Below are positions 12,134 to 23,155 of a stretch of 26,551 nt of DNA, piece after piece (the first letter of the stretch is position 1; each line of letters starts with the position of its first letter). The stretch comes from Candidatus Stramentimicrobium fermentans (GTDB taxonomy: Bacteria > Atribacterota > Phoenicimicrobiia > Phoenicimicrobiales > Stramentimicrobiaceae). The notes under the pieces are model-generated. The model worked only from the letters and a program-made list of their open reading frames with translations. It searched no databases and was not told the origin of the DNA. Location of the stretch: NCBI GenBank assembly GCA_012520575.1, contig JAAYOB010000011.1, forward strand, positions 1 to 26,551, in the 5' to 3' direction. Made by a program: the position numbers and the translations under genes.

Positions 12134-12152
12134 ATTGCATTTGGAGAATAAA

Positions 12153-12629
12153 TTGTCTCTCTATGAAGAACAGTTTAAAAATTATCTAAAGAATAATGAT
12201 TTAAAATATACAAATGAGAGAAAAGAATTACTTAAAGCAATTACTATACTGAAAGACCATTTTCATGTGGAAGATATTTACCAACAGGTAAGGAAGCAGA
12301 AGTCCGATGTCTCCTTAGCTACTGTTTATCGGACTATTCCCATTCTGATAGAGAGTGGATTAATAACCGAGACTTTATCCGAAGGCGATAAAATAGTCTA
12401 CGAAAAGATATATAATGAACCACGCCATGACCATATGGTCTGTCTTAACTGTGGCAAGATAATGGAGTTTAGCTGTCCGGGTATGGAAAAACTACAAAAA
12501 AATATCTGCCGGGAACATTCTTTTATACCGGTAGAGCACCGCTTGGAACTAAGGGGATATTGCCGGAACTGCTGGAAAAATATTAAGCAGAAAATAAATA
12601 ACGGGAAATATAATCAGGAGTTGAAATAG
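12153..12629 (+). CDS. fur: Fur-family ferric uptake regulator
   Basis: A 158-residue Fur-family repressor: winged helix (about 12-82, with VSLATVYRTIPILIESGLI as the recognition region), then the metal and dimerisation domain. Regulatory-site residues include His36 and His38 (DHFHVED) and RHDHMVC (91-97). A structural Zn site is formed by Cys97-x2-Cys100 and Cys137-x2-Cys140. TTG 12153 is preferred over TTG 12135 because GGAG (12143-12146) is 6 bases before it and the upstream start lies against the Fur box. It heads an operon with feoA (two bases after its stop) and feoB. It is the natural candidate to bind this promoter and the one at 7594. Confidence 0.9.
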   Translation: MSLYEEQFKNYLKNNDLKYTNERKELLKAITILKDHFHVEDIYQQVRKQKSDVSLATVYRTIPILIESGLITETLSEGDKIVYEKIYNEPRHDHMVCLNCGKIMEFSCPGMEKLQKNICREHSFIPVEHRLELRGYCRNCWKNIKQKINNGKYNQELK

Positions 12630-12631
12630 CT

Positions 12632-12862
12632 ATGGTAGTAAATTTAATAAATGTGAAACCAGGTAGCAGGGTCAAAGTAATTCGGATTCAAGGTGGGCTG
12701 GGTGTCAGGCAGAGATTAAGCTGTTTGGGGATACATCCGGGCGATTTAATGGCGGTGCAAACCAGTGCCATTATGCAAGGTCCTATTGTGGTGGGTATAC
12801 ATGGGAACAAAGTGGCTATAGGCAGATGTGTGGCAGCTAAAATATTGGTGGAGGAGGTATAA
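12632..12862 (+). CDS. feoA: FeoA-family Fe(II) transport accessory protein
   Basis: A 76-residue SH3-like protein. The pattern VKPGSRVKVIRIQGG, RQRLSCLGIHPGD, GPIVVGIHGNKVAIGRCVA is the standard FeoA fold, thought to bind FeoB and modulate its activity. It begins two bases after the fur stop and its TAA overlaps the feoB ATG (TAATG), so the three genes form a tightly coupled operon. Confidence 0.93.
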   Translation: MVVNLINVKPGSRVKVIRIQGGLGVRQRLSCLGIHPGDLMAVQTSAIMQGPIVVGIHGNKVAIGRCVAAKILVEEV

Positions 12863-14772
12863 TGAAAATCGCACTGGTGGGACAGCCGAATTCCGGAAAG
12901 AGTACCATCTTCAACCATGCTGCCGGCTATAAGGCAATTACTTCTAATTTTCCCGGCAAGACAGTCACCTATACTGTGAGTAAGATGACCTTTCAGGGAG
13001 TCACTATTGAAATAGCGGATTTACCCGGCACCTATTCCCTGACCTCTTTTGATTTAGCGGAATTAGAGACCAGGAAATATTTACTGAGGGAAAAAGTTGA
13101 TGTAGTGGTTAATGTGGTAGATGCTGCCTTATTAAGTAGAGAGTTAGAATTAACCTTACAGGTTTTAGAGTTAAATTTGCCTACAGTTCTTTGCCTGAAT
13201 ATGATTGATGAAGCAGAGGCTAGAGGTATTGAGATTGATGAGCAGAAATTAGCACAACTTTTAGATATACCGGTAGTAAAGACTGTAGCCCATAAAGGAT
13301 GGGGTATCGATGAGTTGTTCGAAAATGTTATAAAAATGAAGTCTAATCCCAGTAAGGGGAAAATACCTACTTTAAGTAAAGATGTGGAAGATGTACTAAA
13401 AGGACTAGTAGGCGAGTTAGAAGATAAAAACTATAGAGACAAGTTCAATGTCCCGCTTCGTTTCCTGGCTACCAAGCTTTTAGAAAATGACCAGTACTTT
13501 ATTGAGGAAGTAAAAAACATAGATGTTGGGTTTATTAAGAATATAAAAAATTATCAAAAGGCGTTGGAACAGTGCCGTGACCGTGATTCAGATGTAGTTA
13601 TTTCCTCCGAGCGTCACCATCTATCTATGGACCTTTATGAGAAGGTGGTTAATCTTACCAAGCCCAAAATGGAACTGCGTAGCTATTTGGACAATATTTT
13701 TATGCACCCTATTTGGGGTTATGTCTCTATGATTGCAATTTTATACCTCTTTTTTAATTTTGTTTTTTATGTGGGAAATTTTTTTGAAGAACCTTTACTG
13801 GATTTTTTTTATCAATTCCTTCCCTATATTGAAGATAGGATGGGTGCAAATACTCTGCTGTTTAATATTACCAATGGCATTGTGCAAGGTTTAGCCGGTG
13901 GTATTGCCATTGTCCTTCCTTTTTTATTCCCTTTTTTGTTGGGATTAGCTTTTTTGGAAGATGTAGGATATATACCCCGTATTGCCTTTCTCATGGATGC
14001 CTTCTTGCATCGTATTGGGCTCCATGGCAAGGCAATAATTCCTTTAATATTAGGCTATGGCTGTACGGTTCCGGCAGTAATGGCAACCCGTATTTTAGAA
14101 TCCGAACGAGACCGTTTCATAGCCAGTGTTTTGACCACTATGATACCTTGTGCCGCGAGAATTACCATTATTTTTGGCTTAGTGGCTTTTTATCTTGGAC
14201 CTAAAGCAGCATTATTTGTTTATGTTTTAAATATAGTGGTAGTTGCTATTGCCGGTAAAATTCTTTCCCGGCTCCTGCCGGAGGTTACTCCCGGTATGAT
14301 AATGGAGATACCCTCATACCATATTCCTTCTCTAAAAGTATTATTGGCCAAAGTCTGGTTAAGGATGAAAGAATTTATTGTTGTTGCCTGGCCCTTGTTA
14401 ATCGCCGGCAGTGTTGCTCTAAGCCTATTAAAGTACTGGCAATTAGAATCTTTTATTAATAAATTGGTATCACCTATTACCCTATTATTAGGATTACCGG
14501 CAGCAGTGGGAGTCACTCTTATTTTTGGAGTTTTAAGGAAAGAACTTTCTATGGTAATGCTGGTACAGGCATTGGGGGCAACAAATATAAGCACTGTAAT
14601 GAGCGCTACTCAAATTATGACCTTTACCATTTTTGTGCTCTTCTACACGCCTTGTGTAGCCACTATTGCCGTTTTAATCAAAGAGATTGGCAGTAAAAGA
14701 ACTATCTTCGCCATGGTTTTTACATTTTTTATTGCCATTCTTTTAGCTACAGCTACTCGTCTCGTTTATTGA
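12862..14772 (+). CDS. feoB: Ferrous iron transporter FeoB
   Basis: A 636-residue Fe(II) permease of the cytoplasmic membrane. The N-terminal G domain has G1 GQPNSGKS (7-14), the switch region FPGKTVTY with Thr34, G3 DLPG (53-56) and G4 NMID (113-116). A helical linker follows to about 270. The membrane domain begins at HPIWGYVSMIAILYLFFNF and contains the Cys of GYGCTVPAVMATRIL in the first gate motif and a related segment, YTPCVATIAVL, near the end. The protein is somewhat shorter than the roughly 700-770 residues common in enterobacteria, lacking a long C-terminal cytoplasmic tail; FeoC is not seen. Repression by Fur through the operator at 12119 is expected. Confidence 0.96.
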   Translation: MKIALVGQPNSGKSTIFNHAAGYKAITSNFPGKTVTYTVSKMTFQGVTIEIADLPGTYSLTSFDLAELETRKYLLREKVDVVVNVVDAALLSRELELTLQVLELNLPTVLCLNMIDEAEARGIEIDEQKLAQLLDIPVVKTVAHKGWGIDELFENVIKMKSNPSKGKIPTLSKDVEDVLKGLVGELEDKNYRDKFNVPLRFLATKLLENDQYFIEEVKNIDVGFIKNIKNYQKALEQCRDRDSDVVISSERHHLSMDLYEKVVNLTKPKMELRSYLDNIFMHPIWGYVSMIAILYLFFNFVFYVGNFFEEPLLDFFYQFLPYIEDRMGANTLLFNITNGIVQGLAGGIAIVLPFLFPFLLGLAFLEDVGYIPRIAFLMDAFLHRIGLHGKAIIPLILGYGCTVPAVMATRILESERDRFIASVLTTMIPCAARITIIFGLVAFYLGPKAALFVYVLNIVVVAIAGKILSRLLPEVTPGMIMEIPSYHIPSLKVLLAKVWLRMKEFIVVAWPLLIAGSVALSLLKYWQLESFINKLVSPITLLLGLPAAVGVTLIFGVLRKELSMVMLVQALGATNISTVMSATQIMTFTIFVLFYTPCVATIAVLIKEIGSKRTIFAMVFTFFIAILLATATRLVY

Positions 14773-20982: not shown

Positions 20983-21395
20983 AGGGTAAGGCGAACCAGT
21001 ATGGTCACAATGGCGGTAGCCAGTAAAGTTGGGCAAACTCCCTGTCGCCGCATTTCATTAGCCAATAGACCCGGTATAATATATCCGATACTTTGAATTT
21101 CTACATTAACTATAGGCAATTGAAATAGAAAACCTTCTACTAACCATTTCACTATAAAACTTATCAGTACCATACTTAAAAAACGCCGCTTTCCATACAA
21201 AATAAGATGATTGGAAAGGAAAAGAACAGTATAGTAGGTCAACAATGCGATACCTATAGTAAGAACAATCCGTCCGGGTTGGTCAATAAAAAGCGCTAGA
21301 TAGCCGGGGACTACTATCCCCCCCGGAGAGAGCCCCACTACTTCGTAAAATAGAAACCCGATTATAATGCCTATTCCAATGGCTTGAAATATCAT
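20964..21395 (-). CDS. pgsC: Poly-gamma-glutamate biosynthesis protein PgsC/CapC
   Basis: A 143-residue membrane protein with about four to five helices, matching PgsC in length and in the GLSPGGIVVPGYLALF segment (about 22-37). It forms the polymerising complex with PgsB at the cytoplasmic membrane. Its ATG overlaps the pgsB stop by four bases (ATGA), so the two are translationally coupled. The exporter component PgsA/CapA is not found within the window. Confidence 0.88.
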   Translation of the reverse strand: MIFQAIGIGIIIGFLFYEVVGLSPGGIVVPGYLALFIDQPGRIVLTIGIALLTYYTVLFLSNHLILYGKRRFLSMVLISFIVKWLVEGFLFQLPIVNVEIQSIGYIIPGLLANEMRRQGVCPTLLATAIVTILVRLTLYLLRF

Positions 21396-22582
21396 AATTT
21401 TTCACCTTTTTCCTTTAAGTAGTCCATCAATTGTAAGCCAAATCCGCGAGTATTGCCAAGCCCATAAACTATTCCCGCTTCTTTGTTGAGTTCCACGATT
21501 TGCTCCAGAACAGATTCAATGTTAGTCTCATTTTGTATTATACTTAAATGTTTTGAGTCTGAAGAATATCCATATTTTTTCAGTTGATTATAGCTGAGCC
21601 GGCTATTCTGACCCGCTAAAAAAATATGGTCTACTTTAAAATCTTTAGTTAAAATCTCAACAAATTGTATAGTTCTGGTAACCCGATCATCACGATTGTT
21701 TAAGAGGACAATTTTAGCAGAATTCAATACAGCAGCAGGCAAAAGCCGGTTTACTTTATCTCTTATTAATATAATAGATTCCCGGTCATTAGCGGCAAAG
21801 GCATTGATAAACCATAATACCCGGTCTCTCACCTTCAATTTATAAATAGTGAGAGCGCCCGGATCCGGTTTTGCTTTTAGTATTCCTTGCCAGCAAATTT
21901 TTTCGGTAATATTTAGAAGTCTTCCCACCTCTAAGGCGATAGCAACATTATCTTTAAAGAGGATATTTTCGGATTCTTTTTTTTGTGAGGGAAGTGTTAT
22001 TTTGTTTAGGTCAACCGGTATACATTTAGAATTCAATTTTTCCGCCTGTTTTTGAAATAAGGGGAAGAAATTTTGTTCTGCAGTTACTAAAAAACCATTC
22101 CTAGGAATTGTTAATTTTAAGAAATTGGCGGCATCTTCTAATTCAGGTCCATAAACATCCTGGTGATCTTCTCTTACATTGGTAATCACGCCGATAGTGG
22201 AATGAATTAATCGATGCTCGCTTACCCATTGTGTTTCCGGATGGACTGCCATACATTCCACCACTATAGCATTGCATTCTCTTTGAGCAGCTTTTTTAAT
22301 AAAATGTTTTTGTTCTATAATGTTGGTAGAACCTCTTCTTTTAATTATCTCCTCTTCACCGTTTTCTAATATAATTCTTGGTGCAGTTCCTGTTGTTTTT
22401 GCCAGAACACGATAGCCGGCTTCTCTTAAAATAGAGGCAATCAGCCTTACTGTAGTAGATTTCCCACGAGTGCCGTTGACCTGAATCCTGATGGGAATAT
22501 TTTCAATTCTTTTTCGGTGAAAATAATTTTCCAGAAAGCCCATTACAAAAATCAGGAGGATAAGGAGGAATAAAATAAACAT
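21392..22582 (-). CDS. pgsB: Poly-gamma-glutamate synthase PgsB/CapB
   Basis: A 396-residue ATP-dependent amide ligase of the Mur-ligase-related family that polymerises glutamate. An N-terminal membrane helix (about 1-16) precedes the P-loop GTRGKSTT, followed by KTTGTAPRII, the metal-binding VVECMAV block and GVITNVREDHQDVYG, all conserved in CapB. ATG 22582 is chosen over a TTG seven codons upstream because AAGG stands 9 bases before it. A possible promoter (TTTACA and TAGTAT, 17 bases apart) lies just upstream. The product could be a capsule or an osmoprotectant polymer, but synthesis also needs an export subunit encoded elsewhere. Confidence 0.92.
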   Translation of the reverse strand: MFILFLLILLIFVMGFLENYFHRKRIENIPIRIQVNGTRGKSTTVRLIASILREAGYRVLAKTTGTAPRIILENGEEEIIKRRGSTNIIEQKHFIKKAAQRECNAIVVECMAVHPETQWVSEHRLIHSTIGVITNVREDHQDVYGPELEDAANFLKLTIPRNGFLVTAEQNFFPLFQKQAEKLNSKCIPVDLNKITLPSQKKESENILFKDNVAIALEVGRLLNITEKICWQGILKAKPDPGALTIYKLKVRDRVLWFINAFAANDRESIILIRDKVNRLLPAAVLNSAKIVLLNNRDDRVTRTIQFVEILTKDFKVDHIFLAGQNSRLSYNQLKKYGYSSDSKHLSIIQNETNIESVLEQIVELNKEAGIVYGLGNTRGFGLQLMDYLKEKGEKL

Positions 22583-22699
22583 AAAAGAGTACCTTATTAA
22601 CAAGATTTTGTTACTTAATACTATAGGAAAGTTATCTAATTGTAAATATTACAAAACCGGTGCACAGGTTCTTTTATTGTGATAAGTAAGAGGCCGTGA

Positions 22700-22794
22700 A
22701 ACAAAAACCCGCTTTGCTTTTGGCAAAGCGGGTTCGAAAGGAGGTATAAAAATGAAAAGAATATCTAGTGGTTTTGTTTCTCTATCTTTAAGCC
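22700..22794 (-). ncRNA. Probable small RNA with an anti-Shine-Dalgarno segment
   Basis: On the minus strand a promoter, about 95 transcribed bases and a strong terminator are assembled with no gene between. Just before the terminator stem, unpaired sequence reads UACCUCCUUUCG (22746-22735), which is complementary to a full Shine-Dalgarno sequence and resembles the 3' end of 16S rRNA. The upstream part is A/U-rich and appears unstructured. This layout resembles trans-acting regulatory RNAs with C-rich seeds such as FsrA or RsaE, but I recognise no specific family. An attenuated leader of pgsBC is the main alternative. Confidence 0.65.
22703..22734 (-). terminator. Strong rho-independent terminator (minus strand)
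   Basis: A perfect 12-bp GC-rich stem, AACCCGCTTTGC with GCAAAGCGGGTT (22734-22723 with 22717-22706), a 5-base loop, then TTTTTGTTT on the minus strand. It ends the predicted small RNA and would also stop readthrough from pspC into pgsB. Confidence 0.9.
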
Positions 22795-22800
22795 AGGAAT

Positions 22801-22828
22801 ATTATAGCACTGATTTTTCCGATGTCAA
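22801..22828 (-). promoter_or_regulatory. Promoter of the predicted small RNA
   Basis: On the minus strand a perfect TTGACA (22828-22823) and a perfect TATAAT (22806-22801) are separated by 16 bases. The predicted start is near 22794. It lies 34 bases downstream of the pspC stop. Confidence 0.8.
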
Positions 22829-22861
22829 GTGTTTAGTAAAAAATATTTATAAATTTTTTAA

Positions 22862-23155
22862 TTAATCTCTCTTTTCGTTAGTTTCCTCAATAATTTCAGC
22901 ATCAATAGTGGTTTGATACTGCCCCGGTGAATTGTTCTCCTTTTCTTTAGCGGAAGAGTAGGATTCCCCTGCTGATGGTGCTAAGGGGATAATCAGCCAG
23001 GCAACCAGATAGGCAATGATTCCCCCTCCGCCAAAAAATATAGTCAGTACTGCTAACAGTCTTATAATAGTAGAATCAACGTTAAAGTATTCAGCAATTC
23101 CTCCACACACCCCGGCAATCTTACTGTCTTGTAGAGAACGATACAGTCTCTTCAT
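22862..23155 (-). CDS. PspC-domain membrane protein
   Basis: A 97-residue protein with the PspC pattern [33 protein letters not shown] and a membrane helix with [19 protein letters not shown] (about 41-59). A hydrophilic Ser/Glu-rich tail follows. PspC proteins sense or respond to envelope stress; in many phyla such short proteins stand alone without other phage-shock genes, as here. AGGGGG stands 8 bases before ATG 23155. Confidence 0.9.

What the first reader, a model, noticed from the sequence alone, without database searches (positions are those of the whole stretch)
22700..22828. Free-standing small RNA gene with an anti-Shine-Dalgarno seed
The minus strand has perfect TTGACA and TATAAT with 16-base spacing, about 95 bases of non-coding sequence and a perfect 12-bp GC-rich terminator ending in TTTTT. 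The unpaired segment before the terminator, UACCUCCUUUCG, complements a full ribosome binding site. That is the design of a trans-acting translational repressor like the C-rich RNAs FsrA and RsaE, and I recognise no existing family.
Basis: partly seen in the sequence, partly recalled or inferred. Interest (0 to 1): 0.72.

Follow-up and report, generated by a model that had tools for sequence, protein, structure and literature searches.

The report
Multi-copy anti-start-site small RNA family
A small RNA gene, present in one to several versions in most genomes of one order of uncultured Atribacteria, carries a sequence complementary to an idealised gene start (ribosome-binding site plus start codon), so it probably switches off translation of many messages; it belongs to no catalogued RNA family.

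Summary
On the minus strand there is a 12/12 sigma-70 promoter (TTGACA-N16-TATAAT, 22828-22801), about 95 nt of RNA and an intrinsic terminator (22735-22705). The window is from a Candidatus Atribacteria MAG. The element is a conserved RNA gene: 29 consecutive invariant bases across eight f1-family copies, with compensatory changes in the terminator stem. It is also one member of a multi-copy family. A covariance search finds relatives in 18 of 24 genomes of the order (up to 5 hits each) and in 0 of 26 other genomes of the phylum. Six subfamilies have different flanking genes and different terminators. All keep the promoter with exactly 16-bp spacing and the core UUUUCAU-N6/8-ACCUCC. That core is antisense to an entire translation initiation region (GGAGGU...AUGAAAA), not only to the Shine-Dalgarno site. 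The mirror-image plus-strand ORF (5-45 codons, changes almost only nonsynonymous, no promoter above chance) is not a conserved protein or type I toxin. Rfam has no match, and no Hfq was found in 24 genomes. Best reading: Hfq-independent sibling sRNAs that block translation by masking start sites, working like LhrC, SisA-D or NfeR1. Expression and targets are not shown; an envelope-protein bias was tested and not found.

The parts
22801..22828 (-). Promoter TTGACA-N16-TATAAT with TG before the -10
   Evidence: -35 invariant and spacing exactly 16 in the copies inspected (the row for L004 picked an upstream chance match, its real promoter is)
22700..22795 (-). Predicted sRNA, about 95 nt, start about 22794 (inferred from the -10)
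   Evidence: fold; homologs
22736..22764 (-). Invariant anti-TIR block AUAUUCUUUUCAUUUUUAUACCUCCUUUC
   Evidence: 29 consecutive invariant columns in 8 f1 homologs
22752..22758 (-). UUUUCAU: complement of start codon and following AAAA; invariant across 25 copies of six subfamilies
22740..22745 (-). ACCUCC: complement of Shine-Dalgarno GGAGGU; invariant across 25 copies
22703..22735 (-). Rho-independent terminator, 13-bp stem and T tract
   Evidence: covariation
22752..22865 (+). Mirror-image ORF, 37 codons with perfect SD; judged non-coding
22862..23155 (-). Upstream neighbour: PspC-like membrane protein (name from sequence, not tested); replaced by a nucleoside-phosphorylase-like gene in G006 and G007
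21392..22603 (-). Downstream neighbour: PgsB/CapB-like ligase (name from sequence); candidate own promoter downstream of the terminator (TTTACA-N17-TAGTAT, 22646-22618)

Best explanation
It is a free-standing gene for a trans-acting small regulatory RNA, one sibling of an order-wide Atribacteria family. Inferred mechanism: a strong housekeeping-type promoter makes a ~95-nt RNA with a largely single-stranded middle and a terminator that protects the 3' end (shown as sequence and predicted fold). The middle, UUUUCAU-N6-ACCUCCUUU, base-pairs with mRNA translation initiation regions: ACCUCC with the Shine-Dalgarno, UUUUCAU with the start codon and A-rich first codons. This blocks 30S binding and represses several mRNAs, without Hfq. 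The siblings share the seed and differ in 5' part and terminator, so they probably act on overlapping targets under different conditions. Shown: gene anatomy, conservation, family, absence of detectable Hfq. Inferred: transcription, base pairing, repression, target identity.
For: Promoter and terminator. 85-nt block conserved 85-91% over most of its length in six f1 relatives, shorter matches in two more; 29 invariant seed bases; terminator covariation. CM searches: 18/24 order genomes, several with 2-5 hits; the promoter+core pattern hits only this order, 17 of 18 hits being family members. Six subfamilies with different terminators but invariant promoter and UUUUCAU...ACCUCC. Different neighbours per subfamily. 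Plus ORF not protein-like. Seed pairs better with 256 sampled gene starts of the same genome (mean -14.95 kcal/mol) than shuffled seeds do (-12.2, sd 0.39). No Hfq in 24/24 genomes, control search positive.
Against: No transcript data. No individual target is established: feoB has the strongest predicted pairing among the sampled genes (-31.4 kcal/mol) but orthologs pair only generically (-19.5 to -24.9). No functional class is enriched among predicted targets. Six of 24 order genomes lack a hit, including two at least 90% complete, so it is not universal. A preference for gene starts is expected of any anti-SD sequence.
Confidence: 0.78

Rival explanations
1. Type I toxin-antitoxin pair (Ibs/Sib-like): the plus strand encodes a tiny hydrophobic peptide and the minus-strand RNA is its cis-antisense antitoxin.
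For: Every copy has a perfect SD + ATG on the opposite strand; several peptides are hydrophobic (MKKLSVLLFVTCCFLFNSF, MKKLFVGWLVRFFNFQTFSILT); multi-copy family.
Against: Peptides are 5-45 aa with varying ends; type C ones are MKKFI and MKKFYLISNI; variable codons are nearly all nonsynonymous (13 nonsynonymous, 1 synonymous-only over four subfamilies); one B1 copy carries extra bases in the CCAA repeat that shift the frame; best plus-strand promoter scores equal shuffled sequence (8.06 vs 8.07).
Confidence: 0.06
2. Transcription attenuator: promoter, leader and terminator form the 5' regulatory region of the downstream pgsB-like operon.
For: Same orientation; pgsB follows the f1 type-A copy wherever the contig extends that far.
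Against: The terminator hairpin is the dominant fold, with no evident conserved antiterminator; a candidate second promoter lies between terminator and pgsB; paralogs of five other subfamilies lie beside unrelated, often oppositely oriented genes.
Confidence: 0.07
3. Antisense RNA dedicated to one co-evolving target rather than a broad regulator.
For: The invariant block extends beyond the anti-SD by 20 nt in f1; the extension differs between subfamilies.
Against: Searches for the full complementary gene start return mainly the sRNA genes themselves; ordinary genes match only imperfectly and differ between genomes.
Confidence: 0.09

Closest known systems
LhrC sRNA family (Listeria), PMC4132741
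   Same: 111-114 nt, five sibling copies, pairs with the SD region of an mRNA, Hfq dispensable for lapB regulation, intrinsic terminator
   Different: Uses three CU-rich sites with UCCC; copies almost identical. Here one ACCUCC plus a conserved anti-start UUUUCAU, and divergent siblings.
SisA-D / alpha-R8 sRNAs (Alphaproteobacteria), PMC12559287
   Same: Sibling sRNAs sharing a 10-mer anti-Shine-Dalgarno motif, differing otherwise
   Different: Studied with Hfq RIL-seq in Caulobacter; here no Hfq was found and the motif extends over the start codon; different phylum, no Rfam match.
NfeR1 / alpha-r14 ('cuckoo') sRNAs, PMC10746234
   Same: Hfq-independent, 123 nt, anti-SD seeds silence mRNAs at the initiation region, widely conserved family
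   Different: Three hairpins each with CCUCCUCCC in unpaired regions; here a single linear anti-TIR before the terminator.
FsrA and RsaE/RoxS (Firmicutes)
   Same: C-containing seeds that mask ribosome-binding sites
   Different: No UCCC motif in the window RNA seed, no Rfam similarity; resemblance is of mechanism only.

Membership tests
RsaE / FsrA / LhrC-type C-rich sRNAs | UCCC motif in an unpaired region | tested here: not met
   Window core reads UACCUCCUUUCG; UCCC absent from the RNA; motif as family feature from PMC4132741
Any Rfam 15 family (including those holding known sRNAs) | Covariance-model score at gathering threshold | tested here: not met
   No match in the window; only sub-threshold chance matches overlap the copies at E<=1
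alpha-r14 / cuckoo sRNAs | Repeated CCUCCUCCC in hairpin loops | tested here: not met
   One ACCUCC in a single-stranded stretch; family definition from PMC10746234
Hfq-dependent trans-sRNAs | Hfq encoded in the genome | tested here: not met
   0/24 order genomes, control genomes positive
Trans-acting anti-SD sRNA (functional kind) | Own promoter and terminator, unlinked to one neighbour, unpaired conserved seed complementary to RBS | tested here: met
Trans-acting anti-SD sRNA (functional kind) | Repression of target mRNAs by base pairing | not testable with these tools
   needs reporter or proximity-ligation experiments
Type I toxin-antitoxin (Ibs/Sib-like) | Conserved small hydrophobic ORF with its own promoter opposite the RNA | tested here: not met

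The most novel reading that the evidence does not exclude
A family of siblings whose conserved part is the antisense of a consensus whole initiation region (SD, spacing, start codon and first lysine codons) acts as a broad translation silencer in Hfq-lacking subsurface bacteria, for instance for slow growth or dormancy, rather than on a few specific mRNAs.
Probability: 0.2. Interest if true: 0.72.

Novelty: new variant of a known kind. Interest (0 to 1): 0.56.

Why it matters
The limited literature search here found no paper on regulatory RNAs in Atribacterota, an uncultured, widespread subsurface phylum. A multi-copy, order-specific sRNA family with a seed built on the whole gene start, in genomes without a detectable Hfq, gives a defined entry point. 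It makes testable how sRNAs of an Hfq-free lineage find targets, and whether extending an anti-SD seed over the start codon gives broader or stronger repression.

Tried and rejected
Protein-coding plus strand / type I toxin: rejected on length, substitution pattern, a frame-shifting indel and lack of promoter. pgsB leader: disfavoured. feoB as conserved special target: orthologs pair only generically. Envelope/secreted-protein regulon: no enrichment among predicted targets (Mann-Whitney p=0.72; top 40 hold 11 N-terminally hydrophobic proteins, about 12 expected). One specific target with full-length complementarity: none seen. Phage origin: the exact 24-nt core is not in IMG/VR contigs. Papers on Atribacteria sRNA: one irrelevant hit; a second search was swamped by unrelated papers.

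Full report
What is there. The window lies in a Candidatus Atribacteria MAG (G000, 1.58 Mb; related contigs are titled so). On the minus strand, 22828-22801 is a 12/12 sigma-70 promoter with TG-extended -10, followed by about 95 nt ending in an intrinsic terminator at 22735-22705. The RNA folds with z -4.7, leaving CUCCUUUCG and most of the stretch before it unpaired or weakly paired. The promoter alone could be chance (28% of shuffles give a site within one mismatch); promoter plus strong terminator was not seen in 60 shuffles.

Conservation. The 85-nt block is single copy at high identity in its genome but recurs at 85-92% identity over part or all of its length in eight f1 relatives and more weakly in the second family of the order. 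Aligning flanks shows conservation beginning at the -35 and ending at the terminator. 29 consecutive bases, 22764-22736, are invariant in eight f1 sequences, while the terminator stem changes by compensation (12 double-change cells vs 4.0 in shuffles, and the slid controls lose it).

A family. A covariance model found further copies in most genomes of the order. Reading them shows at least six subfamilies: A1 (window), B1 and C1 in family f1; A2, B2 and D2 in f2. The window's genome also has a B1 copy, cut by a contig end (L067). Across 25 copies the invariant positions are TTGACA, four bases of the -10, and UUUUCAU-N6(8 in D2)-ACCUCC with a few bases between; spacing between -35 and -10 is 16 in every copy inspected (apart from its L004 row, which picked an upstream chance match). 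Terminators are of different sequence between subfamilies, and the 5' part varies, often forming a 5' hairpin or, in A2, a stem with the bases before CUCCUUU. A model from all copies finds 18 of 24 order genomes and none of 26 others in the phylum (Infernal's stricter filters there may lose weak matches); an independent pattern gives the same limit. Neighbours differ by subfamily: pspC-like or nucleoside-phosphorylase-like upstream and pgsB-like downstream (A1), serS/tRNA (B2), transposase (one A2, one D2), helicase-like (B1), kinase-like genes (C1) (gene names by eye).

Which strand. The seed is the reverse complement of a perfect SD + ATG + A-rich codons, so a small plus-strand gene had to be excluded. 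ORF lengths range from 5 to 45 aa; within aligned stretches 13 variable codons are nonsynonymous and 1 is synonymous only; one B1 copy has an extra CCAA unit and another extra base, which shifts the frame; plus-strand promoter scores equal shuffled sequence. The RNA strand carries the constraint.

How it works. In the sampled part of the genome the seed pairs better with gene starts (-14.95 kcal/mol) than shuffled seeds do (-12.2, sd 0.39). Any anti-SD would show some of this; the additional invariance of UUUUCAU at fixed distance suggests pairing over the start codon as well. No gene found in the searched genomes has a start matching the seed as well as the sRNA genes' own complement; the nearest is one 1-mismatch gene in G003. 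A multi-target regulator with a consensus-like seed therefore fits better than a single-target antisense. Hfq was not found. Predicted targets show no envelope bias, and the strongest sampled one, feoB, is not specially conserved. Target identity is therefore open.

Comparison. Works like LhrC (PMC4132741), SisA-D/alpha-R8 (PMC12559287) and NfeR1/alpha-r14 (PMC10746234): sibling sRNAs that silence mRNAs by masking the SD. Not a member of these: no UCCC or CCUCCUCCC repeats, no Rfam match. I call it a new variant of a known kind.

Limits. No expression data; MAG incompleteness affects absence calls; start-calling was heuristic; E-values from the models are rough, and the sequences used to build a model match it by construction.

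Noticed in passing
G000:C25:12190-12295 (L067): A second sibling (type B1) in the window's own genome, cut by the contig end; B1 copies carry a CCAACCAACCAAC stretch with varying repeat number upstream of the core, possibly a second binding motif.
   Followed up: partly
G010:C23, G010:C79, G011:C172 (L074, L075, L054): Diverged copies that keep the core-like CAUAAUUAUA(U/C)CUCCUUU and terminator but lack a recognisable promoter; possibly decaying copies.
   Followed up: no
L015, L057: Two f2 copies lie next to transposase genes (TnpB-like and IS1595-like by eye), and the B2/D2 copies next to tRNA genes, possible routes of duplication.
   Followed up: no
window 12135-14772: Fur-like, FeoA and FeoB genes; feoB start GGAGGAGGTATAATGAAAA gives the strongest predicted pairing with the sRNA of 256 sampled genes (-31.4 kcal/mol), but this is not conserved in relatives.
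   Followed up: yes
all 24 order genomes: No Hfq homolog detected, so RNA-RNA pairing in this order must rely on another chaperone or none.
   Followed up: partly
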